The position numbers were made by a program, and so were the translations under genes. From Haliovirga abyssi (GTDB taxonomy: Bacteria; Fusobacteriota; Fusobacteriia; Fusobacteriales; Haliovirgaceae), in contig NZ_AP027059.1 of NCBI RefSeq assembly GCF_030295325.1, forward strand, positions 1,794,637-1,858,636: a stretch of DNA of 64,000 nucleotides, written 5' to 3'. The notes under the pieces are model-generated. The model was not told where the DNA came from and did not search any database. It saw only the letters and a program-made list of their open reading frames with translations. Positions 2,536 through 46,814 of the stretch are shown here, piece after piece. Within the stretch, counting starts at the first letter, position 1. Each line of letters starts with the position of its first letter.

Positions 2536-2547
2536 TTTTTCACCCCA

Positions 2548-2862
2548 TTATACAGAAAATTCATTTATGATCTCTTCTAATTCGATTATATTATATTTAT
2601 TATTAATTTTCTGTAATTCATTTTTTATTCGTTTTTCTTTATTCCGAAATTTTAATTTTTCTTCATATTCATACAATACTTTTATTCCACGTTTTATATT
2701 TTCATATACAGCCTGTCTGCTAATGCTATATTTATTTGCAATTTCACTTAATGAATAATCTTCTTCAAAATGTTCTATCATATATTTTTTTTGTTTTTCA
2801 CTAAGTAAATTTTTATAATACTGCAATAATATAGATGTCTCAAAAAAATCTTCTAATTCCAT
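2548..2862 (-). CDS. ylxM: YlxM-family helix-turn-helix protein
   Basis: This 104-residue protein matches the UPF0122/YlxM family, which resembles sigma-factor region 4. The LSEKQKKYMIEHFEEDYSLS segment and the helix-turn-helix YSISRQAVYENIKRG (about residues 45-60) are diagnostic. In Gram-positive bacteria YlxM binds SRP and stimulates Ffh, which fits its place directly before ffh. The start ATG is close behind the predicted transcription start, so the leader is only about 15 bases and carries an AAGGTGA ribosome site. Confidence 0.92.
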   Translation of the reverse strand: MELEDFFETSILLQYYKNLLSEKQKKYMIEHFEEDYSLSEIANKYSISRQAVYENIKRGIKVLYEYEEKLKFRNKEKRIKNELQKINNKYNIIELEEIINEFSV

Positions 2863-2877
2863 TTCATCACCTTGTCA

Positions 2878-2906
2878 ATTATATTATATTTACAAAGCTT
2901 TGTCAA
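2878..2906 (-). promoter_or_regulatory. Sigma-70 promoter of the ylxM-ffh-rpsP operon
   Basis: On the minus strand TTGACA (2901-2906) and TATAAT (2878-2883) are exactly 17 bases apart, a near-consensus promoter ending about 15 bases before the ylxM start. Confidence 0.8.
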
Positions 2907-2944
2907 GTGATTTTTATTTACACTTTTCACTATAATAAAAAAAA

Positions 2945-3005
2945 CACAACTTATCAATATTCTAAGCAAATAAATTTCATTTGTATTAATATTTGTTAAG
3001 TTGTG
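2945..3005 (-). terminator. Long hairpin terminator after the toxin gene
   Basis: CACAACTTA (2945-2953) pairs with TAAGTTGTG (2997-3005), and the pairing continues inward with CAATATT/AATATTTG around a long loop. The minus strand then reads a T-run. It begins 8 bases after the toxin stop codon. Confidence 0.6.
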
Positions 3006-3013
3006 ATTATAAT

Positions 3014-3388
3014 TTATTTTGAATTTGCTATAGCTTTTAATAATTTTTTGTCAAAAGTTGCTATTTCATATCCAGCTTCGAATGAATAAGCATACAATAA
3101 ACAATCTACAAAATCAAGTTTTTTCTCAGAAAAAAGTTTCAAAGCTTTTTTTACTACTTCTTCTTTTTCTAATTCTACACTCCTATTGCTAAAAAAATCA
3201 ACCAATCCTTGCATTATATTAACTCTGTTAACTTTATATAGTTTTTCCAAAACATAAATAACTTCCGCAATTACTTCATTAAAAATTAAAATATCATTGT
3301 TTTCTATTATATTTTCAGCTTCCCTTAAATGTTCTTCATGATCTTCCAATAAATATCTCAAAATAATATTTGCATCAACTATTTTCAA
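3014..3388 (-). CDS. PIN-domain toxin (VapC-like ribonuclease)
   Basis: The 124 residues form a single PIN domain. The acidic metal site is visible as D5 in KIVDANIILRYLL, a conserved Glu in FNEVIAEVIYVLE, D94 in KLDFVDCLLYAYS and the late Asp in IATFDKKLL. Such proteins are Mg-dependent ribonucleases and usually the toxin of a type II pair. The start codon is TTG and its ribosome site is weak; it overlaps the 3' end of the upstream antitoxin gene by 14 bases, so translation is probably coupled and kept low. The RNA target cannot be told from sequence. Confidence 0.85.
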   Translation of the reverse strand: MKIVDANIILRYLLEDHEEHLREAENIIENNDILIFNEVIAEVIYVLEKLYKVNRVNIMQGLVDFFSNRSVELEKEEVVKKALKLFSEKKLDFVDCLLYAYSFEAGYEIATFDKKLLKAIANSK

Positions 3389-3614
3389 ATTTAATCACCG
3401 CTGTTTCTTCCCAAACTTTCTTTTCTCTTTTTATCAATTCCACATTAGAGTACATTTTAAAAACACCTTTTCCTTTTAGTTGCTTAAAATTTTCATTTTC
3501 TTTAGGTTCAATTTTAATATCTTCTACATTTTTTAATTTTTCCAAAATAACGTTCCATTCTTTAACAGGAATAATAATATTATCTGAATACTTCTCTGTA
3601 TGAATAATGAACAT
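3375..3614 (-). CDS. Probable antitoxin of the PIN-domain pair
   Basis: The gene encodes 79 residues from the ATG at 3614, which has GGGAG at proper spacing; a GTG three codons earlier overlaps that ribosome site and is less likely. The N-terminus (MFIIHTEKYSDNIIIPVKEWNVILEKL) has the short beta-strand and helix layout of a DNA-binding antitoxin. The charged C-terminal half would wrap the toxin. I cannot assign it to a named antitoxin family; the function rests on the overlap with the PIN gene and the size. Confidence 0.65.
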   Translation of the reverse strand: MFIIHTEKYSDNIIIPVKEWNVILEKLKNVEDIKIEPKENENFKQLKGKGVFKMYSNVELIKREKKVWEETAVIKFENS

Positions 3615-3681
3615 TTTAATCACTCCCTTATATGAATAATATGTTATAGCAATTTTAAAAAATTAAGTCCCAAAATATTAA

Positions 3682-3785
3682 CTTAGGAACGGCTTAAAAA
3701 TAACCTTCTGATTTTGTTATAAAATACGCAACGATTCAAGCGTCTTTACAACAAAATATATAAACTTATTTTTTAAACATTCCCT
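3682..3785. repeat. Intergenic palindromic repeat, TAGGAACG family, complete copy
   Basis: The element starts TTAGGAACGGCTTAAAAATAA and ends AAACATTCC. Its two halves are imperfect inverted copies of each other, meeting near 3730 (AATACGCAACG against AAGCGTCTTTACAACAAAATAT). It lies between purA and the antitoxin gene, with no open frame. Related copies are listed at 30.9, 57.8, 63.1 and 63.9 kb. Confidence 0.65.
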
Positions 3786-3821
3786 CTCTCTATAATCAAT
3801 CGCATATCTCCTGTTTTTTAA

Positions 3822-5784
<1,963 letters not shown>

Positions 5785-5855: not shown

Positions 5856-7073
5856 TCAAATTATGTCAATTAAATTATTATATACATTCTTTAAATTTTC
5901 ACTGTTTTCTTTAAAAAATATATCTATTTCATCTTTTTTTATATTTTTTTCTATATTTTCATTTGTTATTTCATCTATTTTTTCTTTAAATTCATCTTTA
6001 TTTTTCACCATATATCCTATGCCTCTTTTTTCTATTTCTAATGCTATCTCTTTAACATTCTGTATATATTTTCCAAAAATTGGAGTTTTTCTATAAAAAA
6101 GTGGTTCTAGCAAACTATGTCCACCTACGTTTGTTAATGTACCTCCTACAAAAGTTATGTCTGCTAGTTGATATAATTTTCGTAACTCTCCAATTTTATC
6201 AACTAATATTATATCTGGTGTTTTTACTACTTTACTATCACTATATTTTACATAATTAAAATTTTTTAACAGCTCTTTTTCAATTTTTTCACATCTGTCT
6301 ATATGTCTTGGAACTAAAAAAACAGTTGTATTTTTCAACTCCTTATAAATATCTAATATAATTTCTTCTTCTGTATCGTGCGTACTCCCACAAACAAAAT
6401 TTTTTCTATCTTTCAATTTAAACTTCTCTTTAATTTCTTTTATAACATTTTCATTATATTTTTCTAAATCTATATTAAATTTTATATTTCCTATTGTCTT
6501 TATATTTTTAGAATCAGCTCCTAATTCTTCTATTCTGCTAGAATCTAATTTTGTCTGCATCATAAGCAATGTTATTTTATTCAATCTATTTTTTAATAAC
6601 AGCTTAATTTTTAAGTATCTTTTATAACTTTTATCTGAAATTCTTCCATTTACCAATACAATTTTAGTTTTTTTATATACAATATCTATTAAATTAAACC
6701 AAATCTCTGTTTCAATTAAAACAACTAATTTTACATTAATTTTATTTAAAATTTTCTTTATTGTTTTTACATTATCTAATGGAAAATATTTTATCACTAC
6801 TCTTTTATTTTTTAAATATTTCTTTTTTGCCATTTCCATTCCTGTATCTGTAAATATTGTCAATAAAATTTTATAATCTGTATCTGATAAAAATTTATTA
6901 ATTAAAGGCTCCGACAAATTAACTTCTCCAACTGATGACATATGAATCCAAATGTAATCGTCCGACATTAAATCATCAAAATTTTCTTTAACCCTTTTTT
7001 TGAAAAAATCTGGATTAAATAAATATCCTATTAAAATTAAAATAACTCTTAAAATATTATATATATATATCAT
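5856..7073 (-). CDS. waaA: 3-deoxy-D-manno-octulosonic acid (Kdo) transferase
   Basis: WaaA transfers Kdo from CMP-Kdo to lipid IVA at the inner membrane, so this cell makes LPS. The 405 residues start with one membrane anchor (IYNILRVILILIGYLF). The acceptor-side motif HMSSVGEVN holds the catalytic Glu (residue 50), and the GT-B donor domain contains VGGTLTNVGGHSLLEP. The length is slightly below E. coli WaaA (425). The number of Kdo residues added cannot be judged. Downstream is trmB, about 70 bases away. Confidence 0.93.
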   Translation of the reverse strand: MIYIYNILRVILILIGYLFNPDFFKKRVKENFDDLMSDDYIWIHMSSVGEVNLSEPLINKFLSDTDYKILLTIFTDTGMEMAKKKYLKNKRVVIKYFPLDNVKTIKKILNKINVKLVVLIETEIWFNLIDIVYKKTKIVLVNGRISDKSYKRYLKIKLLLKNRLNKITLLMMQTKLDSSRIEELGADSKNIKTIGNIKFNIDLEKYNENVIKEIKEKFKLKDRKNFVCGSTHDTEEEIILDIYKELKNTTVFLVPRHIDRCEKIEKELLKNFNYVKYSDSKVVKTPDIILVDKIGELRKLYQLADITFVGGTLTNVGGHSLLEPLFYRKTPIFGKYIQNVKEIALEIEKRGIGYMVKNKDEFKEKIDEITNENIEKNIKKDEIDIFFKENSENLKNVYNNLIDII

Positions 7074-7091
7074 TAAAAACTCCTACTCATT

Positions 7092-7150
7092 TCCTAGAAA
7101 ATATTTAAAAAACAGCTTTCTCATATTTTGCTATTTTTAAGCCATTCCTA
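7092..7150. repeat. Degenerate short copy of the TAGGAACG repeat
   Basis: TTCCTAGAAAATATTTAAAAAA...CTCATATTTTGCTATTTTTAAGCCATTCCTA matches the outer arms of the TAGGAACG family with the middle deleted. It lies between the exporter gene and waaA. Confidence 0.4.
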
Positions 7151-7158
7151 TACTATTT

Positions 7159-8010
7159 TTAATCTGTTCCTAAATTAATTAATACAACTGACAAAAATAT
7201 TAATGTCCCACCAATAATTACATTTAACTTTAATAATTCTCCTAAAAAAATTATACTTAATATTGCTGCAACAAAAATTCTACTAGAAGATAATATACTA
7301 CCACCTAATGCACTTATATATTTATATCCTTCCGTTATAAAAAATTGCCCTAAAAATGATACTGCTCCAACTGAAACCAACAACAGTAACTCATACACTG
7401 AAGGAATCTTAAAAAACCACACAAAACTAAAAAATGTGATTACAAGACCTATTTTCATTAAATAATATAATATTGTAAAAGATTCATCTGTTAATCTAGC
7501 TTTTCTTAATGATATAATTGCAAATCCTGCAACAACTCCACCTAATATACCTGTTATATCTCCTAATCCCACCTCTTTAAAATTAAATCCAACTACTAAA
7601 TATGTCCCAATAAGTGCTAATAATACAATAAAAGCTTTTTTTAATGTTAATTTTTCATCTAAAAAAAATGGAGCAAATATTGCTACAAAAATTGGATATG
7701 TCAAATTATATATATTTGCTTTTGTAACTGTGGAAAGCTGTATTGTTACAAAAAATAAAATTACAGCTAAAGTATTTAATATTGCTCTTGCCCACAATGC
7801 TTTTTTATTTACAGGAACAATCTTTTTTTTCTTAATAGATTTTATAGAATATATAATTATAAAACCAATTAAAAATCTAAAAAATGTAACCTCTACTCCT
7901 GGAATATTATTATTTTTAGTTATTAATTTTACTATTAACGTCATAAATGAAAAGAATAATACTGATATAAAAACTAAAAAATATCCTTTGAATTTTGTGT
8001 TTAATTTCAT
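7159..8010 (-). CDS. EamA/DMT-family membrane transporter
   Basis: This 283-residue protein is almost entirely hydrophobic, with about ten membrane helices arranged as two repeated EamA halves. The first half begins GYFLVFISVLFFSFMTLIVKLI and contains FFRFLIGFIIIYS; the second begins DITGILGGVVAGFAIISLRKA. The family exports amino acids, nucleosides or other small metabolites, but the substrate cannot be read from the sequence. It stands alone, with a degenerate repeat behind it and the hup terminator in front. Confidence 0.85.
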   Translation of the reverse strand: MKLNTKFKGYFLVFISVLFFSFMTLIVKLITKNNNIPGVEVTFFRFLIGFIIIYSIKSIKKKKIVPVNKKALWARAILNTLAVILFFVTIQLSTVTKANIYNLTYPIFVAIFAPFFLDEKLTLKKAFIVLLALIGTYLVVGFNFKEVGLGDITGILGGVVAGFAIISLRKARLTDESFTILYYLMKIGLVITFFSFVWFFKIPSVYELLLLVSVGAVSFLGQFFITEGYKYISALGGSILSSSRIFVAAILSIIFLGELLKLNVIIGGTLIFLSVVLINLGTD

Positions 8011-8056
8011 AATTTCTCCCTTTGCCTAAAATAAATTTATAAAAATTTTTAAATAA

Positions 8057-8082
8057 TAAAAACCCGCTAAAGCGGGTTTTTA
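8057..8082 (-). terminator. Terminator of the HU gene
   Basis: AAAACCCGCT TAAAGCGGGTTTTT-type hairpin: ACCCGCT pairs with AGCGGGT and T-runs flank both sides. It begins one base after the hup stop codon and is symmetric enough to act in both directions. Confidence 0.85.
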
Positions 8083-8361
8083 TTATTTATGGTTTACTTT
8101 ATCAGCTAATTTTTTACCAACTTTAAATTTAACAGCTTTTTTTGCAGGTATAGTTATTTCTTCACCAGTTCTAGGATTTCTTCCTTTTCTTTCAGCATTT
8201 TGTCTTACTTCAAAAGTTCCCCAACCAACAAATTGAACTCCTTCTCCTGCTACTAATGCTTCTTCTACAACTTCAAGAAATGCGTCTGCCATTTCCCCTG
8301 CTTTTCTTTTGCTTTCTCCTACTTTTTCTGCATACTTTTCAATAAAATCTTTTTTTGTCAT
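8083..8361 (-). CDS. hup: HU-family DNA-binding protein
   Basis: The 92 residues are a complete HU/IHF fold. The dimerising helices are in 1-45. The signature GWGTFEVRQNAERKGRNPRTGEEITIPA forms the two beta-ribbon arms that enter the minor groove, and KKAVKFKVGKKLADKVN closes the fold. HU bends and compacts DNA. The gene is monocistronic: its own promoter (8459-8486) and a tight terminator (8057-8082). The start is preceded by AAAGGAGG. Confidence 0.96.
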   Translation of the reverse strand: MTKKDFIEKYAEKVGESKRKAGEMADAFLEVVEEALVAGEGVQFVGWGTFEVRQNAERKGRNPRTGEEITIPAKKAVKFKVGKKLADKVNHK

Positions 8362-8458
8362 CTTTTATTACCTCCTTTTATTTTACACTTCTAACATCTT
8401 AAAAATAATCCTACAAACTATTATATTTAAGGCATCGAAGAGAACGTCTACTCTATGT

Positions 8459-8486
8459 ATTATACATATTTTTTAAAATTTGTCTA
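8459..8486 (-). promoter_or_regulatory. Promoter of the HU gene
   Basis: On the minus strand TAGACA (8481-8486) and a perfect TATAAT (8459-8464) are 16 bases apart. The leader to the ATG at 8361 is about 90 bases long. Confidence 0.7.
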
Positions 8487-8494
8487 GCTTTTTT

Positions 8495-9955
8495 TTAAAA
8501 ATCTATATTTTTTATAAATTTTCTTTTAAAATTATCACTGTTGGCTAAGTCAATATATTCAATTTTTTGGTGAAATTCATCATAAAATTTTTCATCTATT
8601 TCTCCTGTTATATATCTATAAAGCCCTGATATTACTAGGTTATCGACAATTTTTATTTTATCTAACTCAATATTCGGCATTAACCCTATTTTTATTAACC
8701 CTTTTTTATCTAAGTTTTTTCCAAAATTTCCTGTAATTATAATTTTTTTTATTTTATCATAGTTATTTTCCATCATATCAATTGCACTTCTTATTGACGA
8801 TTTTGCCATCTGTATCTCTCTAATATCATTTTGTGATATATAAATATCTTCTGTTAAATAAAATTTTTGCTCTTTTAATCTTCTATTTAAAAATGGATAA
8901 TATCTGTTTTTAGATTTTATATTTCCATCTTTTCCAATAGTTTCTGTGTAAATTAACTCTCTAAGAAGAGCTATTACTCCACTACCACAAATTCCTTTTA
9001 ACGGTTTATCTCCTATTGTTTGTATTTCCACTTTTTCATCTATTCTAATATCACTTAATGCACCTAACGTAGCTCTCATTCCGCAGCTAAGAGATGCTCC
9101 TTCAAATGCAGGACCAGCAGCAGTTGATGTAACATAAAATTTCCCATCTCTAATTAACACTATTTCTCCATTTGTACCTATGTCAACTATAACTATATTA
9201 TCCATATCTTCTTTTTTATTATAATATCCCATAATAACTGCATACGTATCTCCACCAACATAACCTGCAATGTTAGGCATTACCTCTATTCCAGTCACAT
9301 TAAGACCTATTTCTAGCCCTTTAAGAGCTTTTTTTTCTGTAAATGCAGGTGCATATGGTGGTGTTATTAAACTTTTAGGAGAAATTCCTAAAAAAATATG
9401 CTGCATAGTGGAATTTCCTGCTAAAACAAGTTTTTCTATATTACCTATAAGTTCTCTGTTTAATCTATCTATTAAAATCTTTTGAATCTCTCTTAATTTT
9501 TCTTTACTTTCTACAGCGTATAATATTCTTGAAATAACATCTGCTCCATATATTATTTGTGGATTAAAAAATTTTTTCTCTCCTACTTTTTCAAAATTTT
9601 CTTTATTATAAAAATTCATTTCAATAGTTGTAGTTCCTAAATCAACTGTGCAAATTAACTTTTTATTATCTATTTCTAATAATGATTTTTCATAAAACTC
9701 TTCTTTTTCTATAATTTCTATTTCTACTTTATCTTTAAATTCTGTCATACAAGCTAATCTTATTCCATTCTCAATCTCTTTTTCTGATAATAAAAGTTTT
9801 TCATTTTTACTTATATCATTAAATTTTCCATTTAAAATTTTAATTTTACATTTACCACAAGTACCATTTCCACCACAAGGGGCATTAATCTCATAATTTG
9901 ATTTCATTATATTTTTTAATATATTTTTTCCATTTTCTTCATATAATTTAACCAT
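8495..9955 (-). CDS. 2Fe-2S ferredoxin / ASKHA ATPase (corrinoid-activation-like, DUF4445)
   Basis: Residues 1-75 form a plant-type 2Fe-2S domain with C27, C33, C36 (CGGNGTCGKC) and C69. The rest is an ASKHA (actin/Hsp70-like) ATPase: CTVDLGTTTIEMN is the phosphate-1 loop and VIVDIGTNGEIVL the phosphate-2 loop. In acetogens and methylotrophs such proteins (RACE/RamA relatives) reduce inactive corrinoid proteins with ATP. At 486 residues this is shorter than typical ~600-residue RACE proteins because the linker region is reduced. No corrinoid methyltransferase gene is nearby, so the partner is unknown. The deacetylase gene ends one base before this start. Confidence 0.8.
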   Translation of the reverse strand: MVKLYEENGKNILKNIMKSNYEINAPCGGNGTCGKCKIKILNGKFNDISKNEKLLLSEKEIENGIRLACMTEFKDKVEIEIIEKEEFYEKSLLEIDNKKLICTVDLGTTTIEMNFYNKENFEKVGEKKFFNPQIIYGADVISRILYAVESKEKLREIQKILIDRLNRELIGNIEKLVLAGNSTMQHIFLGISPKSLITPPYAPAFTEKKALKGLEIGLNVTGIEVMPNIAGYVGGDTYAVIMGYYNKKEDMDNIVIVDIGTNGEIVLIRDGKFYVTSTAAGPAFEGASLSCGMRATLGALSDIRIDEKVEIQTIGDKPLKGICGSGVIALLRELIYTETIGKDGNIKSKNRYYPFLNRRLKEQKFYLTEDIYISQNDIREIQMAKSSIRSAIDMMENNYDKIKKIIITGNFGKNLDKKGLIKIGLMPNIELDKIKIVDNLVISGLYRYITGEIDEKFYDEFHQKIEYIDLANSDNFKRKFIKNIDF

Positions 9956-38505: not shown

Positions 38506-38587
38506 GATATTCTCCATGTTTTCTTTTTTTTATTCTATCATGTCCAAGTATTTTTTGTATAATTTATCACTGAAGATACATTTGTTG

Positions 38588-38674
38588 CATAACATTTTGA
38601 CAGTTCAGGCGATGTGCTTGAGAGTTGTGAGCGATAGCGAAACCTCAAAATCATATAGTCTGCTGTCTGTTATG
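38588..38674. other. attC-like recombination site A
   Basis: The 87-bp imperfect palindrome runs from CATAAC to GTTATG. The left arm CATAACATTTTGACAG matches the right arm CATAACAGACAG apart from four extra bases. It shares GCGATGTG, AAATCATAT and TGTTAT with the site at 42457-42594. It lies downstream of the KilA-N gene, where the attC of that cassette should be. The gap 38506-38791 otherwise holds only an ATG-less 54-codon frame. Confidence 0.45.
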
Positions 38675-38791
38675 ACTCTGTATTCAGACGGAATTTCATA
38701 TATAGCTTCAATAGAATAATTTTTTTTTAGTTTTTCAATCCGAAATCTCAAAACATACAAAAGACGCTATAGGAAGTACTATCGGCTATGC

Positions 38792-39625
38792 TTACTTATT
38801 TTTTTCTAACTTTTTCATTCCTTCAATAGCTTTTTTGTTGGATAAAATTTTCATTTGTTCTATTGCAACTCTGTTAAGATTTATCAGTCTTTCTTTTTGA
38901 TTTAAACCAGCTTTTATATACTCAGAATTTAGGTTTTTGAGGTTCGCAAGAATAAGCAGTTGTTCAAGGCTTGCATAATCTCTTATATTTCCATCTTTAT
39001 CTGGATTTTTCTCTCTCCATTCTTTTGCTGTCATTGAAAAAAGAGCCATATTTAATAAATCAGCTTCATTCGCATAAGTAAAGCTTTGTTGTTGAGGAGT
39101 TAAATCTTTGGGAATTAAATTTTCTTTTATTGAATCCGTATGAATTCTATAATTAATTTTTGCTAAAGTTCTACTTACATCCCATTCGATATTTTTTCTG
39201 CTATTTTCTTCATCGATTAATCTTTGAAACTCTTTTATTAGATAAAGTTTAAACTCTGCTGATACCCAAGAAGCAAATTCAAAAGCAATATCTTTATGGG
39301 CAAAAGTTCCTCCATACCTTCCACTACTTGTTGTTATTCCAATTGCATTTGTCCCTTCTATCCATTTTTTAGGAGACATAGTAAAAGCATTTCTGCCTGC
39401 TTCATTTTTAAACCCGTCGAATTCGACGGGTTTAAAATCACTATTATTTATTTTCTCCCAAAGACCTAAAAATTCAATTGTATCTTTACTTCTTAACCAA
39501 TTTTTTATAACATCATTTGGAGAATCACTTTTATACTTTGCAATATCAGTAAGTGATATATAATCAGATTGATTAGCCTTTTTTACAGATATTGAAATTC
39601 CTTTTACATCTACTTTTTTTGCCAT
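38792..39625 (-). CDS. KilA-N domain protein
   Basis: The 277 residues contain a KilA-N domain in the first half (ISLTDIAKYKSDSPNDVIKNWLRSKDTIEFLGLWEKIN...GRNAFTMSPKKWIEGTNAIGI, then GRYGGTFAHKDIAFEFASWVSAEFKLYLIKEFQRL). KilA-N proteins are common in phages and mobile elements and bind DNA. The C-terminal half is helical and ends in NKKAIEGMKKLEKNK. It follows the SEFIR gene by 40 bases, so the two form one operon and may be one functional unit. Its start has AGGAGG. A 32-bp perfect palindrome lies within it. Confidence 0.85.
   Translation of the reverse strand: MAKKVDVKGISISVKKANQSDYISLTDIAKYKSDSPNDVIKNWLRSKDTIEFLGLWEKINNSDFKPVEFDGFKNEAGRNAFTMSPKKWIEGTNAIGITTSSGRYGGTFAHKDIAFEFASWVSAEFKLYLIKEFQRLIDEENSRKNIEWDVSRTLAKINYRIHTDSIKENLIPKDLTPQQQSFTYANEADLLNMALFSMTAKEWREKNPDKDGNIRDYASLEQLLILANLKNLNSEYIKAGLNQKERLINLNRVAIEQMKILSNKKAIEGMKKLEKNK
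39406..39437. repeat. 32-bp perfect palindrome inside the KilA-N gene
   Basis: TTTTAAACCCGTCGAA and its exact reverse complement TTCGACGGGTTTAAAA are joined without a loop. The palindrome encodes FKPVEFDGFK of the KilA-N protein. Confidence 0.85.
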
Positions 39626-39665
39626 TTTACCTCCTGAATATCAAATTAAAATCTACTAATTCTTT

Positions 39666-40529
39666 TTATAAATTTGACTTATTAAAATCGTCTAATAGTT
39701 CTTCTAAATTACACTTAATATTGGCACAATTCTCCAAAATAAGTTTTGCTCTTTTTTTTATCACTTCATTTTCAGTTCCCATCCCAACATCATATGCTGT
39801 TTTTCCAAATAAATCGTAATTATCCCATCCACCATAGCCTGTTGCTTGCACATAATTACTATCTATAGAATCCAATATTTTAATTTGATTTATTTCTTCG
39901 AATTTTATAATAATCTTACCAAAATTATTTAGATGATACTTAACAATGAACTTTGCTATTAAATCCTCTTCTAATATTTTTAATATTTTACTGTAGACCT
40001 CCGAATCAAATAATCCTTTTTTTACTTTTTCATCTATGGAAATATTGTTGATTCTATCAGGTATTTCAATTTGTGTACTCAATTCAAATTTAGGTTTTTC
40101 AACAATTGGTTTCCCTTCAATCGCGTTAATAAATTCGTTTAACTTTTCATCATTTAAATCAAAACTTGGATTAAGTTCTATTCCAAATATAGATTCCATA
40201 TAATCTGGTTTAACGCTTATTCCTTCTAAAAATACAGGTATAAATTTTTCTTGTTTAGTATTTCTATATACTTTTGGGCTAATAATTGAAGTTTCTACTC
40301 CAACGCCACTAATTCTATTATTAGCTTTATTTACATACTCTTTCTCGCATATAACGAATACTTTTTCAGCTTCTCTTATAGAATTTTCCATAAAAGAATC
40401 TATGTTATGTCCAGGTCTTATTTCCCATTTATCTAAAATAACATCATATTTGCTTGATAATTTAGTTGCCAAATCTATTACCAATTGATCATAACGTTCC
40501 CAACAATATGATAAGAATATTTTTTTCAT
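39666..40529 (-). CDS. SEFIR/TIR-like domain protein, probable defence effector or sensor
   Basis: From the ATG at 40529 (AAGGAAG upstream) the protein has 287 residues. The first 150 match the SEFIR/TIR group: box 1 KKIFLSYCWERYDQ, VILDKWEIRPGHNIDSFMENSIREAEKVFVICEKEYVNKANNR, GVGVETSIISPKVYRN and KFIPVFLEG. The last 130 residues are helical or mixed and unrecognised (NLEELLDDFNKSNL at the end). SEFIR proteins in bacteria often act in phage defence, for instance by NAD depletion. An in-frame stretch back to 40685 has no ribosome site and is probably not translated. The KilA-N gene follows. Confidence 0.75.
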   Translation of the reverse strand: MKKIFLSYCWERYDQLVIDLATKLSSKYDVILDKWEIRPGHNIDSFMENSIREAEKVFVICEKEYVNKANNRISGVGVETSIISPKVYRNTKQEKFIPVFLEGISVKPDYMESIFGIELNPSFDLNDEKLNEFINAIEGKPIVEKPKFELSTQIEIPDRINNISIDEKVKKGLFDSEVYSKILKILEEDLIAKFIVKYHLNNFGKIIIKFEEINQIKILDSIDSNYVQATGYGGWDNYDLFGKTAYDVGMGTENEVIKKRAKLILENCANIKCNLEELLDDFNKSNL

Positions 40530-40742
40530 AAAATCACTTCCTTCACTAAAATATTTTGTAGATGTTACTTCTATACTTAGACGGATACGATGTCCGTCGA
40601 GAACAATATTTTGAGATTTAGGATTAATTCGCAGTATATCTCTTACGATATTTTTTATTCTCTTTGGGTCATAATAGACTTCCATTAGGAAAATAACCTA
40701 GTCTGAATATGTGTCATAACTCCGTGGCGGGTAAACGATGGG

Positions 40743-40800
40743 CGTTAGCCAAGATTGGGGGAGTTCGACACCCACCCGCACTCAACAATCTTGGCTAACG
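40743..40800. repeat. 15-bp perfect inverted repeat beside the attC-like site
   Basis: CGTTAGCCAAGATTG (40743-40757) and CAATCTTGGCTAACG (40786-40800) are exact inverted copies with a 28-base GC-rich loop. The right arm shares GCTAAC with the attC-like site at 40794-40921. The stretch 40530-40742 has no supported gene. Confidence 0.7.
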
Positions 40801-40921
40801 TGTTCACTGCATGCAATGTCCCAAAGCCGTACAACAAGGAAATGAACCTTAGAGCTTGCTCTTGGTAAATGACGCCGTAACTCGGTAGGGGATGGAATAT
40901 CCGTATGTGCAGAGTGTTAGC
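40794..40921. other. attC-like recombination site B
   Basis: The 128-bp imperfect palindrome runs from GCTAAC to GTTAGC. The left arm is TAACGTGTTCACTGCATGC and the reverse complement of the right arm is TAACACTCTGCACATACG, so the left arm has extra unpaired bases, as at the other two sites. It is markedly GC-richer than the flanks. It overlaps the stop codon of the Cap15-like gene by a few bases, as attC sites often do. Confidence 0.5.
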
Positions 40922-41450
40922 TGATCGTTGATTCAAATTCAATATCTCCAAGTGTTTTTCTATCAGTAAAATATTGACCGGTAAGTCGATCTCTATTTTC
41001 GATTTTTAAGCGACAAATTCCATAATGAATTTCACTCCTATTCCGTACATTTGCATTAGGAGTATTCAGATAATAGTATACTAAAAATTTTTCTCCATAT
41101 TCTGTGTAAATTTTACTCATTATTGCTTTGCTTTCACTTTCATCAGTTTTTAAATATATTTGTATGGCAAACAAATTTTGAACAATTCTTATTTTTGCTT
41201 CCCTTTTATTTCCATCAAATTCAGATATAAGAAAACCATCATACTCTTTATGTAATTTTGGGGTTTTACTTAGAGGATTAAACTTCCAAAAGAAGTGAAT
41301 ATAAGACATTGATAGCACTATTACTATCGAAATTGTTTTACCTATATTTTCAAGAATAGATTTATCGACAAACATTTTATCTACTAAAAGATAAATAATT
41401 ATTGATATAATTATAATACTTTTTATATACCATTTTAGATTTTCTTCCAT
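40917..41450 (-). CDS. cap15: CBASS effector, Cap15-like (two membrane helices plus beta-rich domain)
   Basis: From the ATG at 41450 (GGAGGGAGGT upstream) the protein has 177 residues. Two membrane helices (about 8-24 and 34-54) precede a beta-rich domain (about 66-177: GFLISEFDGNKREAKIRIVQNLFAIQIYLKTDESES... GICRLKIENRDRLTGQYFTDRKT). This is the architecture of the Cap15 effector, in which a beta-barrel binds a cyclic nucleotide and the helices disrupt the inner membrane. The upstream nucleotidyltransferase gene ends 13 bases before this start, which supports the pairing. Confidence 0.78.
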   Translation of the reverse strand: MEENLKWYIKSIIIISIIIYLLVDKMFVDKSILENIGKTISIVIVLSMSYIHFFWKFNPLSKTPKLHKEYDGFLISEFDGNKREAKIRIVQNLFAIQIYLKTDESESKAIMSKIYTEYGEKFLVYYYLNTPNANVRNRSEIHYGICRLKIENRDRLTGQYFTDRKTLGDIEFESTIS

Positions 41451-41463
41451 GATACCTCCCTCC

Positions 41464-42426
41464 TTATATTTCAATTTCAAAATATTCGTTTATTTCCTTG
41501 ATAAATTTTTTATATTTATTAACCATTTCTTCATTACTAAATAAGACTTTTATTCCATTTACCTCCTTAAAAGTACCTAACATAAAGTTATTATTATTCA
41601 AATATATCAAAATATCATCAAAAGTATACTTTAATAAAGAATATTTACTAAATAAGTCATTTGGAAGATTCCATAACAGTGACTCCAATCCAAATGACGA
41701 AACCTGCTCTACTGATTTATAGCCATCTTCTTTCATTAAATTTCTTATTTTTTTTAAAATTCTTACATGTTTTTTAAAATAATAATTTGTTTTATTATTC
41801 TTTTCTTTCCCATTTATTATATGCTGTTCAGGATAATTCCTTATTCTTCCACCACTATCAGGTCTAATCTCAATTCCACCAATATAATTTGAAGAATCAA
41901 AGTTATAATCATCTTTATAATTTCTTAGACGATATGCTGGAACCACATCAGCATCAACTCTATAGCTATTGCCAATAACTTTCAAAGATTTATCATTCCT
42001 TATAACACCTTGATTATTAAATTTTAAATTTAAAGCTCTTTCTACATCATCCTTCAATTCTTTAGCCGAATAAGTTCCATCTGTGAAAAAATATTTTTCC
42101 CCCGTAATTCCTGCCCTATACTCAGGAATAAAGGTTGATTCCAAAATAACGGCCACATCTACATCACTATGACTTCTAATATTCGTATTGTTTGCATAAG
42201 AACCTTGTATAAGAATTCTCAATTTTTTACTATAGTCACTAGTATTCATATCTAGTGTATAAGAAAATGTATCCTCACTATATTTTTTTATAACTTCACT
42301 ATTGTCTAAATACCCTGATAGTTTCATAGCATCTCTAACCATTTTTATGGCATTTTTACACTTTTCATCTTCAGTTTGACTTAATGGTAGTGCGAATTTT
42401 TTCAATAATTCTTCATCAAATTTCAT
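41464..42426 (-). CDS. CBASS CD-NTase (cGAS/DncV-like nucleotidyltransferase)
   Basis: The 320 residues contain the nucleotidyltransferase motif GSYANNTNIRSHSDVDVAV (75-93) with catalytic D88 and D90, and the third acid in YRVDADVVPAYRLRNY (about 158-160). The helical C-terminal half (HIINGKEKNNKTNYYFKKHVRILKKIRNLMKEDG) is the SMODS layout. On sensing phage it would make a cyclic oligonucleotide that activates the adjacent Cap15-like protein. No Cap2/Cap3 or HORMA genes are present, so this is a minimal (type I) CBASS. The start has AGGAGG. Confidence 0.9.
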   Translation of the reverse strand: MKFDEELLKKFALPLSQTEDEKCKNAIKMVRDAMKLSGYLDNSEVIKKYSEDTFSYTLDMNTSDYSKKLRILIQGSYANNTNIRSHSDVDVAVILESTFIPEYRAGITGEKYFFTDGTYSAKELKDDVERALNLKFNNQGVIRNDKSLKVIGNSYRVDADVVPAYRLRNYKDDYNFDSSNYIGGIEIRPDSGGRIRNYPEQHIINGKEKNNKTNYYFKKHVRILKKIRNLMKEDGYKSVEQVSSFGLESLLWNLPNDLFSKYSLLKYTFDDILIYLNNNNFMLGTFKEVNGIKVLFSNEEMVNKYKKFIKEINEYFEIEI

Positions 42427-42456
42427 TTTTACTTTCCTCCTAAGCTTAAAATGTCA

Positions 42457-42594
42457 GCTAACGGTTCCAGTGTATGCGATGTGAATTGAGGCATTAGAGT
42501 GGTGCAGCCTGAGGCTCGTGAGCTTGCAAACCTCCGAAGCAAACCACGTCCCATAAGGGCTTGCCGAAATCATATCGTATACACTGTGTTATAC
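42457..42594. other. attC-like recombination site C
   Basis: The 138-bp imperfect palindrome runs from GCTAAC to GTTATAC. CAGTGTATGCGAT (42468-42480) pairs with ATCGTATACACTG (42574-42586) with one mismatch, after an unpaired GTTC-type insert on the left. The centre is a second, longer GC-rich stem region. It lies between the large nuclease-like gene and the CBASS genes, where the attC of the large-gene cassette is expected. Confidence 0.6.
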
Positions 42595-42699
42595 ACTGGC
42601 TCTAGTCTTAACTTCATTTTTATTTAATACCGTTTAATTTACCTTTAAATCGCTCCCATTTTTCCTTAGGAGAACACGAGTTTCGACGGATATCATTAC

Positions 42700-45600
42700 T
42701 TAATCACCCCAATGTTCTAATTGAGCATATTCCAGATTTGACTCTTTTTCATAGAATTCTGCTAGTTTTTTTAAAAGTTTTTTTGTTTTGCTATGTAGAG
42801 GATTTATCTTTAAACTATTATTTTTGTATTCTTCAGCAATTGCTCTCTCTTCATTTCCAGCATCATAAATATTTTTATGTGATACTCTAATTCCATTAGG
42901 ATATATTTTTCCATGTAAAATTCCATCAAATAATTCTTTACAATAGTATTTTTCTAAAACATCTCTGATAACTTCATGTGGCCACACTTCATCAGAGCCT
43001 TTGGGTGATTTTGATAACATTTGTCCTATTATAGTGTAGACAGATTTAGTGTAATTATGATCTTTAGAAAATTTTGTTACATATTCAAGCCAACTTAAAA
43101 GAGTATTTTGTTCTATAGAATCATTTAGATTAATATTAAACTTCCAGATATCAAAAAATTCTTTTATATTTAGATAGATTTGTATGTTATTATCCAATTT
43201 TTTAAAATAATTTCCATCATCATCTCTAAATCCCATTTTCAATATTTCAATAAAAAATTCTGGATTAGTAATAATTTCTTTATTTAAAATTTCCGGATTT
43301 ACATCAATATATCTAAATATTTTTAAATAGTTCCATTCTAAAATCATTAATTTGTTTTTATCATAATCATTTTTGTTATATACATATTTAAATAATTCTC
43401 CAAAATTGTAACTAGAAATAGTTTTTTTTTGAGAAGTTAAATATCCTTCTAAAGCTAATACAATAAGATTTGATGGTATATCTTTATTCCTATAACATTC
43501 ATGATATATAAAATTTATTGCTTTTACATAATGTTTATAGTACATTAGTTTTTCAATTAATTTGATAGCAACTTTTGATTCATTTGTTCTAAATTCAGCT
43601 TGCAGTTCAAAGTATAATTTTTCAATTTCTATATTTAAAGATAAAAAGTCTAATAATTCACTAGTAATATCTTCATATTGTAGCAACATAACTTTATTTT
43701 CATTACTTAATAGAGCTGTATTATTTAAGAAATTAACAATTATTGACACTCCTTTTTCACTAACAAAATATCGAACAAATCCATGTATAACTCTATATTT
43801 TTTTAAGTCTAATAATTTTAGAATAAATTCTTTATCAATGTTGTCAAAAAATAACTCACCACAATAATATCCAATATGAAAAAGTGAACTAGAGTCAGAT
43901 TTTTTTATTAAATCAAAAATTAGACTTCTATCTTTATTAGCAATTTCTACTAAAGCTTCACATCTTAATTTTTTTGCCTTACTTCTTGAGACTTCCCAAT
44001 TTTCTTCATCTTGAAACAAATTATATTCACTATTTTGAAATAACCAAAGATTTTTTAAAATAATATCTTCAATAATTATATGATCTTTTAGTTCTGTTAA
44101 TTTATCTAAATAATTACCTTTTATGGCCCAGTAAGTATTTTTAAATCTAATATGTCTGTTTATTTCTTGTTCTATTTCTACTTTTAAAAGTTGTAATTTA
44201 TCTTCACTTAAATTTTTAGTATAAGAATAAATACTGGATAATACTAAATCTTTAAGATTATTAGGTAAATTAGAATAGTCAGATATTAAATCAAAACAAC
44301 ATTCAACATTGAATATATTATTACACTTAAGTTCAATTATTCTTTCAGTTTGTATTAAAATTTCTTTGTTATTATGATATTCTCTTTTCTCTAATCCCCA
44401 TTCTCTATAAATAGGAGAACTATTAGGAAATAAAACTGCATGAGGTTTTGGTAATATGTTAGTTACTAATCTCCAAGCCTTTTGAGCATCTTTTTTAAAA
44501 AAACTCTCAATAGCTGCTAAACGAAATTTATACTCAACAATTGTTTGAGGCCAGTATAAATTAAAAATATTTTCTAGTGAACGCATAGGATTATTATTAT
44601 TATAGTCAATAGTGAAACAATCTACCAATTCAAACAGAATATTAACACAATCAGAAAAATATTCCTCATTCCATACCAATTTTTCAATTCCCCATAAAAT
44701 AGACATATATGATTTATCTCCACCATAAAAACTGTCTACAGGTTTAAATAGAGATAAAAAATCTTCATTATCTCTATTATTTAAAATAAAATCAACTACG
44801 ATATCAGGAGAAATCTCTGATAAAATTTCAAAATTTTCTATAAAAGTCTGCAATTTCTGTTTGCTATCAATATTTTTTATAATATTTTTAATAGAATAAT
44901 CAATTTTTAATTGATAACTATCATTTATACATACCAAAGTTGTAATACTTTTCAACATTTCATTTTTTAAATTAGAAGAAAAATCAGTAGTTTTATTGTA
45001 TAGTTGCCAAAATTGTTGTTTGCCTTCTTCTAACTCAAACTTTGGATTAGTTACTTTCATAATTTCTTCAAATTGTTCTATAAAAATTTCAAATTTTGAA
45101 GAATCAATTTTATTATGCAATTTATACCATAATTCCTTATAATTTGTAATTTTCCAAATTGAGTTAATTTTTTTTATCGGAGGATCAACTTCGTAAGTCC
45201 AATTAAGCAGTTTATTAATATACTCTGAATATTTTTCGTTAGATATTTTTTCTATAATTTCTTTATCTTTTACATTTTCATCATTCCAACATCCGACTAG
45301 TAATGCAGGGAGTAATTCTACTAAATTAGGCTTTTTAATCCAATCTGATTCTTTCAATAGCTGATTTTTTGAAGAAAGTCTGATCAATCTAAATATGCTC
45401 CCTTTCATTTCTCTCTCAAGCTCATATTTCTTATTTGAATCAATTTGAATATTTCTTAATTCTTCTGAAATTTTACCTCTATTGATAAATGATAATTCTA
45501 TTCCCTTATCAATACTACCTTTGTACTCCTTTCCAAATGTAAATAATTGTTTATTGTTAGAGTTCGTAATTGGTGAGGTAAAATCATAATATGTTATTAA

Positions 45601-46413
45601 ATAGTGATTTTTCAAGTGTTTAGAAGTTAAATCCCAATCTTCTTCACTTTTTACAATTAATGTTTTTGAAATAATATTATCCTTTTTGTCACTTTCTAAT
45701 TTTTTAACAACTGCAATAAATGATAGTATCGCTTCTTCTTTTGATTCTCCAATAATATTTAAGAATGGCTTGTCATTTTCTATCCAAATTTTAATTAATT
45801 TCTCTTCTTTTTCTCTACCTGCTAAAATCATATTTGATGTTATTTCAAATTCTGTTTCTCCAACAAATTTATCCCAAAATTCATTTATACTTAAGAAATT
45901 ATCAATTTGTAGTTTATGTATCATTCCTTTTAACCACTTTGAAATTACAGGAAATAACTCTAACCATTCTTCTAAATCACATGCATCATAAATTTTAATA
46001 TCTTTCCATATACCATCTTTTTTCTTTTCGTTAATCCAATCATTCTTTGTAGTAAATAGTCTAGGAGTAACAAAAATAAAAGTTGAATTACTTTTATCAA
46101 TTCCTAAATCTTGTTCAGAACGTTTAGAGTAATCACTTTCAAGTTTTAATTTCACATTTTTATTTGTTCCGATTTCCCATATAGAAATTCCTTTTGGGAT
46201 ATATTTCTTATTATTTTCAACTTCAACAAATCCATCCAATCCTGAATACTGAACACTATCTCCACTTGGAAATCTAGAATATTTTATTTCGTTATTACCA
46301 TAAGAAGCATATATAAGTTTTTTTACTAAAGTTGGACATTCCTGTTGAGATTCTTTAGAATTTGTTTCTGACCATAATTTTAAGTCATTTGTAGTTATCC
46401 ATTTAAAATCCAT
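42700..46413 (-). CDS. Large protein with nuclease-like N-terminus and degenerate P-loop, candidate defence protein
   Basis: From the ATG at 46413 (AAGGAGG upstream) the protein has 1237 residues; a longer frame to 46536 lacks a ribosome site. Residues 1-165 resemble a PD-(D/E)XK-like module found at the head of large uncharacterised proteins: GDSVQYSGLDGFVEV (D60), YIPKGISIWEIGTN (E80), DYSKR, STFIFVTPRLF and YDACDLEEWLELFPVISKW. Near 212-235 a degenerate P-loop (FLNIIGESKEEAIL) stands where a STAND ATPase would have GxxGxGK. The remaining 900 residues are helical and HEAT-like. It sits alone between a decayed gene and an attC-like site. Confidence 0.7.
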   Translation of the reverse strand: MDFKWITTNDLKLWSETNSKESQQECPTLVKKLIYASYGNNEIKYSRFPSGDSVQYSGLDGFVEVENNKKYIPKGISIWEIGTNKNVKLKLESDYSKRSEQDLGIDKSNSTFIFVTPRLFTTKNDWINEKKKDGIWKDIKIYDACDLEEWLELFPVISKWLKGMIHKLQIDNFLSINEFWDKFVGETEFEITSNMILAGREKEEKLIKIWIENDKPFLNIIGESKEEAILSFIAVVKKLESDKKDNIISKTLIVKSEEDWDLTSKHLKNHYLITYYDFTSPITNSNNKQLFTFGKEYKGSIDKGIELSFINRGKISEELRNIQIDSNKKYELEREMKGSIFRLIRLSSKNQLLKESDWIKKPNLVELLPALLVGCWNDENVKDKEIIEKISNEKYSEYINKLLNWTYEVDPPIKKINSIWKITNYKELWYKLHNKIDSSKFEIFIEQFEEIMKVTNPKFELEEGKQQFWQLYNKTTDFSSNLKNEMLKSITTLVCINDSYQLKIDYSIKNIIKNIDSKQKLQTFIENFEILSEISPDIVVDFILNNRDNEDFLSLFKPVDSFYGGDKSYMSILWGIEKLVWNEEYFSDCVNILFELVDCFTIDYNNNNPMRSLENIFNLYWPQTIVEYKFRLAAIESFFKKDAQKAWRLVTNILPKPHAVLFPNSSPIYREWGLEKREYHNNKEILIQTERIIELKCNNIFNVECCFDLISDYSNLPNNLKDLVLSSIYSYTKNLSEDKLQLLKVEIEQEINRHIRFKNTYWAIKGNYLDKLTELKDHIIIEDIILKNLWLFQNSEYNLFQDEENWEVSRSKAKKLRCEALVEIANKDRSLIFDLIKKSDSSSLFHIGYYCGELFFDNIDKEFILKLLDLKKYRVIHGFVRYFVSEKGVSIIVNFLNNTALLSNENKVMLLQYEDITSELLDFLSLNIEIEKLYFELQAEFRTNESKVAIKLIEKLMYYKHYVKAINFIYHECYRNKDIPSNLIVLALEGYLTSQKKTISSYNFGELFKYVYNKNDYDKNKLMILEWNYLKIFRYIDVNPEILNKEIITNPEFFIEILKMGFRDDDGNYFKKLDNNIQIYLNIKEFFDIWKFNINLNDSIEQNTLLSWLEYVTKFSKDHNYTKSVYTIIGQMLSKSPKGSDEVWPHEVIRDVLEKYYCKELFDGILHGKIYPNGIRVSHKNIYDAGNEERAIAEEYKNNSLKINPLHSKTKKLLKKLAEFYEKESNLEYAQLEHWGD

Positions 46414-46601
46414 AGCAAACCTCCTTGAACAATCTAAAATTTCTTTATAAAAGGCGGTATAGGAAGTACCGCTGACTAAAATAAAAAAATGGGATTGATT
46501 TTTATTCAAATATCTAAAGTATAAACCTGCTTGCATATAACTCGTTTATACACGCATAAAACCTTCGCATATCCCTCCATATAGTTCGTATATACGCAAA
46601 T

Positions 46602-46814
46602 CTATCCATCTTCAAATAAATATTTTTTTGATTTATATATCTTTTTATACTCTTCTAGTTTTATTAAAAACTGTTTTGATCAAGCTACCACTCCGTCTTT
46701 ATTCCAATTAAATTCTACTATATTTATTCATCCTATGTCAATATTTATATTCATTATCTTTATGTTTTCCAATTCTAAATCCCGTGATAATTTTACGGCA
46801 TTTCCATATAAGTT
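46602..46814 (-). pseudogene. Decayed protein gene with two internal TGA codons
   Basis: One frame reads NLYGNAVKLSRDLELENIK, then two separate TGA codons, then EFNWNKDG and SKQFLIKLEEYKKIYK, and ends with TAG at 46602. It has protein-like composition but no start codon. TGA is used as a normal stop elsewhere in the window, so this is a remnant and not recoding. It may be a dead cassette upstream of the large gene. The rest of 46414-46938 holds a hairpin (GCGGTA/TACCGC, 46454-46472) and a degenerate TAGGAACG repeat (about 46840-46915). Confidence 0.5.

What the first reader, a model, noticed from the sequence alone, without database searches (positions are those of the whole stretch)
38588..46814. 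CALIN-like cassette array carrying defence-type genes
Three GC-richer imperfect palindromes (38588-38674, 40794-40921, 42457-42594) share one plan: AAC at one end, GTT at the other, a left arm with about four extra unpaired bases after TAAC, and shared words GCGATGTG and AAATCATAT. Each lies just downstream of a gene module on the minus strand, and between them are cassette-sized units of about 1.5 and 2.1 kb. This is how integron attC sites and cassettes are arranged. No integrase is in view, so it would be a cluster of attC sites lacking an integrase. Every module looks like antiphage defence. Integrons are known carriers of defence genes in Vibrio; in this lineage I know of no description.
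Basis: partly seen in the sequence, partly recalled or inferred. Interest (0 to 1): 0.85.

Follow-up and report, generated by a model that had tools for sequence, protein, structure and literature searches.

The report
Defence-gene cassettes from an unrecognised integron
This stretch is a row of swappable gene cassettes, largely anti-virus genes, next to the remains of the enzyme and docking site that probably loaded them; that enzyme belongs to a sister group of the known integron enzymes which lacks the domain used to define integrons, and so it seems to have been passed over.

Summary
The three palindromes are attC-type sites (38587-38675, 40790-40922, 42456-42594; minus-strand array). A pair model trained only on sites of other genomes ranks them 2nd, 4th and 1st of 3,562 candidate pairs in the window. 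The genome has four such platforms, three with recombinase remnants, and 17 sites named by scan, model or eye. The best remnant (C1:65 kb) has homologues mainly in Bacteroidota, also Spirochaetes, Firmicutes, Nitrospirae and an archaeal bin (best 80 kept). Those checked lack the ~40-residue IntI-specific domain and form a supported sister clade to IntI. attC-like sites are enriched downstream on their strand: 79 in 348 kb, against 4 in 730 kb upstream. tet(X) and blaVEB lie behind such attI sites; their homology to other contexts begins at GTT, including attI1 of a class 1 integron. So: a new integron variant that searches by the IntI domain would miss; the window is a degenerate member loaded with CBASS and bSEFIR genes. 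Recombination is inferred, not assayed.

The parts
46610..46767 (-). relic of a tyrosine recombinase gene (internal piece of about 53 codons, broken frame)
   Evidence: 88.6% DNA identity over 158 bp to the C1:65 kb recombinase fragment; also seen in the alignment
46538..46602 (-). attI-like site; crossover GTT at 46541-46539
   Evidence: 96.9% identical to the site 3' of the C1:65 kb recombinase; four strong matches in the genome, itself included. Its inverted box pair is weak by my score (12)
42700..46536 (-). cassette 1: 1278-aa protein of unknown family
   Evidence: ORF; no Pfam over cut-off, no NCBIfam, no PADLOC, no PDB match
42456..42594 (-). attC-type site 3, closes cassette 1
   Evidence: rank 1 of 3562 in window with a model of foreign sites; fold z -3.1 on the + strand
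41464..42426 (-). cassette 2, gene 1: CD-NTase (CBASS cyclase)
   Evidence: PADLOC Cyclase E 1.2e-99; NCBIfam NF053871 E 2.6e-44, below its cut-off
40917..41480 (-). cassette 2, gene 2: Cap15 2TM effector
   Evidence: Pfam PF18153 E 8e-22; PADLOC Effector 2TM E 3e-44
40790..40922 (-). attC-type site 2, closes cassette 2 (weakest of the three)
   Evidence: rank 4 of 3562 in window; fold not better than shuffles
40730..40808 (-). hairpin overlapping the R' end of site 2; related pieces at C1:68.35 kb and C1:1735.9 kb
39666..40685 (-). cassette 3, gene 1: bSEFIR protein
   Evidence: PADLOC bSEFIR E 1e-53; Pfam TIR_2 and SEFIR
38792..39625 (-). cassette 3, gene 2: KilA-N protein, candidate defence family PDC-S22
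   Evidence: PADLOC PDC-S22 E 4e-133; Pfam KilA-N
38587..38675 (-). attC-type site 1, closes cassette 3
   Evidence: rank 2 of 3562 in window; R2 32.2 bits, E 8e-4 genome-wide, but it is in R2's training set

Best explanation
The stretch is a degenerate chromosomal integron of an unrecognised variant. [quoted passage not shown] It inserted cassettes at attI by recombining the attI GTT with the GTT of a folded attC (inferred from breakpoints in relatives). Three cassettes were loaded here: an unknown 1278-aa gene, a two-gene CBASS, and bSEFIR plus KilA-N. The recombinase decayed here and in the sister arrays of the same genome, leaving fixed defence islands. Shown: sites, attI, relic, four platforms, clade, missing domain, shared breakpoints in relatives. 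Inferred: bottom-strand recombination, cassette excision, expression, defence activity.
For: Sites: foreign-trained pair model. R1, trained without own sites, finds C1:70390 (E 6e-5), 1126502 (0.002) and 90783 (0.05) in the whole genome and nothing else at E<=10; among 98 genomes of the phylum it hits only this one and one of a sister family (E<=0.01, stricter filters). attI in four copies, three beside recombinase remnants. In 80 homologous loci: 79 attC-like hits in 348 kb downstream on the same strand, 4 in 730 kb upstream, 20 on the other strand of 1077 kb, 7 in one shuffle of both strands; 24 of 33 loci with at least 4 kb downstream have a hit. attI box pair score>=18 in 23 of 72 loci against 23 of 1,292 control windows; 43 of 72 best sites have GTT 90-104 nt after the stop. 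KDR-to-RH spacing 60-65 in 22 of 22, IntI 91-103 in 5, Xer 64-66 in 9; 16 residues face 58 of IntI 2a3v. Tree of 39 rows: clade 97/96, sister to IntI 100/100, joined 99/95. IntI over cut-off in 3 of 28 such genomes. Breakpoints at GTT: tet(X) after this attI and after an attC-like site in Empedobacter; blaVEB after this attI, after attI1 and after an attC behind aac(6')-Ib.
Against: No recombination was observed, and no full-length recombinase of this type was found in the genome. Two of three window sites fold no better than shuffles, and R1 does not report any of the three. The own attI copies score only 12 on the box-pair measure (window and 65 kb), and at 1110 kb the best-scoring place is not the attI. 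Two of three cassettes carry two genes. The 36 model sites were picked by a scanner that asks for pairing, so their covariation is partly built in; some of the 79 hits are doubtful. 47 of 80 loci gave no downstream hit; 26 of these end within 1 kb. tet(X4) plasmids match only from inside the gene, not from GTT. tet(X3) and blaVEB-3 sit beside insertion sequences, and their recombinases are short of full length, so a class 1 enzyme could have moved blaVEB.
Confidence: 0.86

Rival explanations
1. A CALIN in the ordinary sense: cassettes deposited by a canonical IntI of another cell, with the nearby recombinase irrelevant.
For: The sites have the RYYYAAC/GTTRRRY plan; blaVEB shows that a class 1 integron accepts a cassette of this attC family. 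No full-length recombinase of the clade was found in the genome.
Against: An attI-like site with the 3' remains of the other recombinase heads the array and recurs in the genome. 25 of 28 genomes with a homologue have no IntI over cut-off, and 21 of these 25 have an attC-like hit downstream of the homologue (the 28 were mostly chosen for such hits, and draft bins may miss genes).
Confidence: 0.08
2. The palindromes are terminators or dispersed REP-like repeats that happen to lie between defence genes of a hot spot.
For: They lie at gene ends; fold z is weak for two.
Against: A model from other genomes ranks them at the top of the window. Genome-wide model hits fall only in the four arrays (whose hits are all training sites). 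Cassette breakpoints in relatives fall at GTT.
Confidence: 0.04
3. Xer/dif-type modules: the cassettes are pdif modules moved by XerC/XerD.
For: The recombinase is Xer-like in domain length, and XerA, XerD and XerC models score above the IntI model.
Against: The clade is apart from Xer in the tree; boundaries are long palindromes ending in GTT.
Confidence: 0.02

Closest known systems
Canonical integrons (IntI with additional domain, attI, attC cassettes; class 1, Vibrio superintegron)
   Same: attI plus cassettes ending in attC-type sites; borders at GTT; recombinase is the sister clade; blaVEB cassette found in both
   Different: recombinase lacks the IntI-specific domain; it lies upstream of attI and points toward the cassettes
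Treponema chromosomal integrons (PMC3607928, passages seen)
   Same: recombinase transcribed toward attI, same direction as the cassettes
   Different: described there as intI; I fetched no Treponema IntI, so the domain was not compared
CALIN (cluster of attC lacking integrase)
   Same: at least two attC-type sites and no working integrase
   Different: attI-like site and recombinase relic are still present
xerD-tet(X)-res-ISCR2 modules of Acinetobacter plasmids (PMC7530245, passages seen)
   Same: plasmid pAl01 (CP044019), compared in that paper, carries a recombinase 54% identical to P0001 (H17); in L161 tet(X3) is the first gene after such a recombinase and its attI-like site
   Different: the passages explain movement by ISCR2 and do not mention attC; here read as a cassette behind its integron platform. 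The plasmid recombinases were not put in the tree
NCBIfam NF040815 recomb_XerA_Arch, product name site-specific tyrosine recombinase/integron integrase
   Same: best NCBIfam match of P0001; the name already hints at integrons
   Different: match below its cut-off (157 of 220 bits; P0001 is a fragment); the name says nothing on attI or attC

Membership tests
canonical integron | IntI recombinase with the IntI-specific additional domain | tested here: not met
   KDR-to-RH spacing 61 in the own fragment and 60-65 in 21 homologues, against 91-103 in 5 IntI (the 91 was measured from a later motif, a sixth IntI was not matched); residues 258-273 of a homologue face 186-243 of IntI 2a3v; no own match over the TIGR02249 cut-off
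canonical integron | attI site next to the recombinase gene | tested here: met
   65-bp site in four copies, at the 3' end of recombinase remnants in three; positioned box pair in homologues, though weak in the own copies
canonical integron | attC sites with R and L boxes forming a bottom-strand hairpin with unpaired bases | tested here: met
   bottom strand folds with z -3.3, -3.5 and -2.4 for three own-genome sites outside the window; in the window only site 3 stands out
canonical integron | crossover at G/TT of the core site | tested here: met
   in relatives only: tet(X) and blaVEB homology begins at GTT
canonical integron | recombinase active on attI and attC | not testable with these tools
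   needs a recombination assay
CALIN | two or more attC sites, no integrase gene in the neighbourhood | tested here: met
   three sites; only a relic remains. IntegronFinder's own model was not available
Treponema-type co-oriented integron | recombinase transcribed toward attI | tested here: met
   own arrays; downstream placement in homologous loci
Xer/dif module | 28-bp XerC/XerD sites at module borders | not tested
   borders are palindromes with GTT; no dif search was made

The most novel reading that the evidence does not exclude
A large, cross-phylum class of working integrons runs on recombinases that never had (or lost) the IntI-specific domain. Searches by that domain miss them, although they are plausible sources of clinically important cassettes such as tet(X) and blaVEB and trade cassettes with class 1 integrons. 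The domain would then not be needed for cassette recombination as such, and integrons would be older than IntI.
Probability: 0.7. Interest if true: 0.95.

Novelty: new variant of a known kind. Interest (0 to 1): 0.88.

Why it matters
The additional domain is called defining and necessary in PMC9668308 and was a selection rule in PMC2426708 (passages seen of both). A sister clade with attI and attC arrays but without it gives a direct test of what that domain is for and of how integrons arose. It suggests that integron counts in Bacteroidota may be far too low: IntegronFinder 2.0 (PMC9024848, one passage) names one complete integron in Bacteroidetes proper, in Salinibacter ruber. It also offers a cassette origin for tet(X) and blaVEB. 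For the window it explains how one Fusobacteriota-type genome gathered several defence systems in four islands.

Tried and rejected
Rfam scan of the window: no match. Whole-genome TIGR02249 search: 12 weak hits, none over cut-off, and the control genomes also ring weakly; the recombinases of the second contig (224-238 kb) are weaker relatives in a repeated block and have no attI of this type that I saw; two other C1 hits I read as Xer genes. Direct-repeat search of the region gave only AT-rich noise. DNA search with the palindromes found only interior fragments elsewhere, but these led to the second array. Infernal with filters off on the window reported no credible site, in my reading because long loops exceed its length bands. 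My scanner at score 36 gave 14 hits in 274 kb of held own sequence (both strands): 10 array sites on the array strand, 3 within arrays otherwise, 1 outside; three shuffles gave 10 in all.

Literature: the listings of searches showed no paper on integron integrases without the additional domain or on integrons in Fusobacteriota. Lists are capped, the library is open-access only and holds no preprints, so this is not proof of novelty.
Full report
OBSERVATION. The window is C1:1794637-1858636 of a 2.73-Mb genome in two contigs. The three palindromes lie at 38587-38675, 40790-40922 and 42456-42594. Read on the minus strand, the strand of the genes, each begins TAAC-A-stem and ends stem-NNNNN-GTTA: about one unpaired base on the 5' side and five on the 3' side. 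The words GCGATGTG and AAATCATAT are in sites 1 and 3 only. Fold energies beat shuffles clearly only for site 3; for all three the + strand, which is the bottom strand of the genes, has the lower energy.

A SECOND ARRAY LED TO THE PLATFORM. Fragments of the palindromes recur near C1:68-74 kb. There a 186-aa tyrosine-recombinase fragment (P0001, C1:65210-65770; Pfam Phage_integrase) is followed by a 65-bp site, then by gene modules separated by sites of the same plan. The 65-bp site has four strong matches in the genome: the window (46538-46602), C1:65781, C1:1459585 and C1:1110427. Upstream of it the window keeps a 158-bp relic of the same recombinase (46610-46767, 88.6% identity), and the 1459-kb copy keeps a pseudogene. 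At 1110 kb no recombinase remnant was seen; the gene before it is an anthranilate-synthase-type gene. So the window array is headed by a decayed recombinase and an attI-like site, both co-oriented with the cassettes.

MAP OF THE FOUR ARRAYS. Sites named by scan, model or eye: C1:65-92 kb nine (68200, 70390, 72182, 73594, 74422, 83333, 84558, 90783, 92227); C1:1110-1127 kb three (1112723, 1118306, 1126502; a further weak one at 1123436); C1:1455-1460 kb two (1456037, 1455090); window three. That is 17. Two group II introns sit just behind attC ends in the 65-kb array (Rfam RF02003, RF02012, RF00029; maturases). Contents include CBASS twice, bSEFIR, PDC-S22, PDC-S51, type I and type II methyltransferases, TIR, PtuB-like and HEPN proteins and Fic, and others without a defence match, among them an Asp/Glu racemase and a nucleoside phosphorylase. 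Of 20 proteins of the other arrays given to PADLOC, 10 had a match at 1e-5; not all ORFs were given.

THE RECOMBINASE FAMILY. In the own phylum (98 genomes) 34 of the other 97 match at E<=1e-20, at most 42% identical, which I read as Xer. Many homologues carry about 70 extra N-terminal residues; 9 of the 80 frames are under 250 aa. Between the KDR and RH motifs 22 of 22 checked, P0001 included, have 60-65 residues, like Xer (64-66, 9 rows) and XerA (62, 64), and unlike IntI (102-103 in 4 rows, 91 from a later motif in a fifth; a sixth was not matched). phmmer against VchIntIA (2a3v) leaves 16 residues facing 58. In a tree of 39 rows the 22 form a clade (97/96), sister to six IntI (100/100), the two together apart from Xer and XerA (99/95). 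XerA rows were partial, one branch is long, the root is a midpoint, and sampling is small.

SITES BESIDE THE HOMOLOGUES. In 80 loci my attC scanner (score 38) gave 79 hits in 347,725 bases downstream on the same strand, 4 in 729,693 upstream (the 1.2 kb before the stop left out of the hits), 20 on the other strand of 1,077,418 and 7 in one shuffle of both strands. 33 of 80 loci had a downstream hit; of the 33 loci with at least 4 kb downstream, 24 did. Some of the 79 are doubtful; 36 were chosen for the model, mostly those with AACA, and pairing was part of the scanner's rule, so the paired columns are partly built in; the C before GTT, invariant in all 36, was not asked for. The 3' flank of the recombinase holds an inverted box pair ending in GTTR: score>=18 in 23 of 72 loci against 23 of 1,292 random windows (8 loci too short), and 43 of 72 best sites lie 90-104 nt after the stop. 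By the same measure the own attI copies are weak (12). Of 28 of these genomes searched, 3 hold an IntI over the TIGR02249 cut-off.

INDEPENDENT TEST OF THE WINDOW. A pair model from the 36 foreign sites scored all AAC...GTT pairs 40-200 nt apart in 12 own stretches (16,952 pairs). The ten best are all array sites; window site 3 is 3rd overall, site 1 9th, site 2 22nd, and 1st, 2nd and 4th of 3,562 in the window. Infernal model R1 from the same sites finds three own sites in the whole genome (E 6e-5, 0.002, 0.05), and in 98 genomes of the phylum, at E<=0.01 with stricter filters, hits only this genome and G063 of a sister family, which has two on one contig. R1 misses the three window sites. 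R2, built from own and foreign sites, gives 11 genome-wide hits, all in the four arrays and all from its training set.

NATURAL EXPERIMENT AT THE BORDERS. On an Acinetobacter baylyi plasmid tet(X3) is the first gene after a recombinase of this family (54% to P0001), and on a Klebsiella michiganensis plasmid blaVEB-3 is (60%). With the attI-cassette junction as query, two tet(X) plasmids of Empedobacter match from exactly the G of GTT onward (position 183 of the query); in the one read out, what precedes is the end of a 196-bp attC-like site. Of the 40 tet(X) records shown, 7 match throughout, 2 from GTT, 29 from inside the gene (mainly tet(X4)) and 2 from further inside. For blaVEB, 49 plasmid records matched; of the 40 shown, 32 begin at positions 147-155, GTT being at 150, and 7 cover attI too. 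In two read out, the preceding sequence is the end of attI1 (recognised from recall; intI1 is annotated nearby) and of an attC behind aac(6')-Ib. The blaVEB attC (133 bp) and the tet(X2) attC (133 bp) resemble sites of the Bacteroidota arrays (E 1e-10 and 2e-8), and the tet(X3) 3' flank resembles the left half of such a site. This places one cassette in both systems with one breakpoint. It does not show which enzyme made each junction. PMC7530245 (passages) describes xerD-tet(X) and explains it through ISCR2.

MECHANISM. Most likely the recombinase binds attI and a folded attC and exchanges strands at GTT, adding cassettes at attI; transcription of the recombinase gene could run through attI into the cassettes. 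Shown: anatomy, clade, missing domain, breakpoints. Inferred: single-strand folding as substrate, excision, transcription, defence activity. In this genome the system looks like a fossil: no full-length enzyme of the clade was found.

KNOWN OR NEW. Works like an integron; not a member by the strict IntI-domain definition, which was tested and not met. PMC2426708 selected integrases by that domain and PMC9668308 calls it defining and necessary (passages). PMC3607928 (passages) reports co-oriented integrases in Treponema. PMC8352920 (passages) models attC of eleven taxa, Bacteroidota not among them. PMC8618304 (passage) lists phyla with integrons; Bacteroidota are in the list, Fusobacteriota are not. 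NCBI's family name already says integron integrase for NF040815. Ten literature searches (listed in Tried and rejected) showed no account of this variant.

Noticed in passing
L161 (NZ_CP104737.1) 5887-7836 and L185 (NZ_CP043636.1) 2312-3834: tet(X) looks like a gene cassette: it starts at the GTT of an attI or of a preceding attC-like site and, in Empedobacter, ends in its own 133-bp attC-like site.
   Followed up: partly
L162 (NZ_CP084417.1) 7863-9484: blaVEB-3 lies directly behind an attI-like site of this recombinase family; the same cassette start is found at attI1 of a class 1 integron (L186).
   Followed up: partly
L016:18550-19920 and L017:4600-7000: Two group II introns sit directly behind attC ends of the 65-kb array, as known for attC-targeting introns (that link is recalled).
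   Followed up: partly
window:42700-46536: 1278-aa protein with no family match over cut-off; its N-terminal part reads to me like a nuclease-type domain (recognition from recall, untested).
   Followed up: no
G063 contig 136 (L175, L176): A genome of a sister family has two attC-like sites about 2.4 kb apart on one contig.
   Followed up: no
window:40730-40808, L016:18356-18440, L020:10838-10953: A hairpin with CAAGATTG...CAATCTTG-like arms recurs beside attC-type ends, perhaps a gene-less mini-cassette.
   Followed up: partly
L024 (C2:230-250 kb): The second contig carries near-identical copies of a recombinase block 6 kb apart and large repeat-rich proteins.
   Followed up: no
L083, L081 and other homologues, N-terminus: Many of the recombinases carry a conserved N-terminal stretch of about 70 residues (RWS...W.LP) outside the part that aligns with IntI or Xer.
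   Followed up: no
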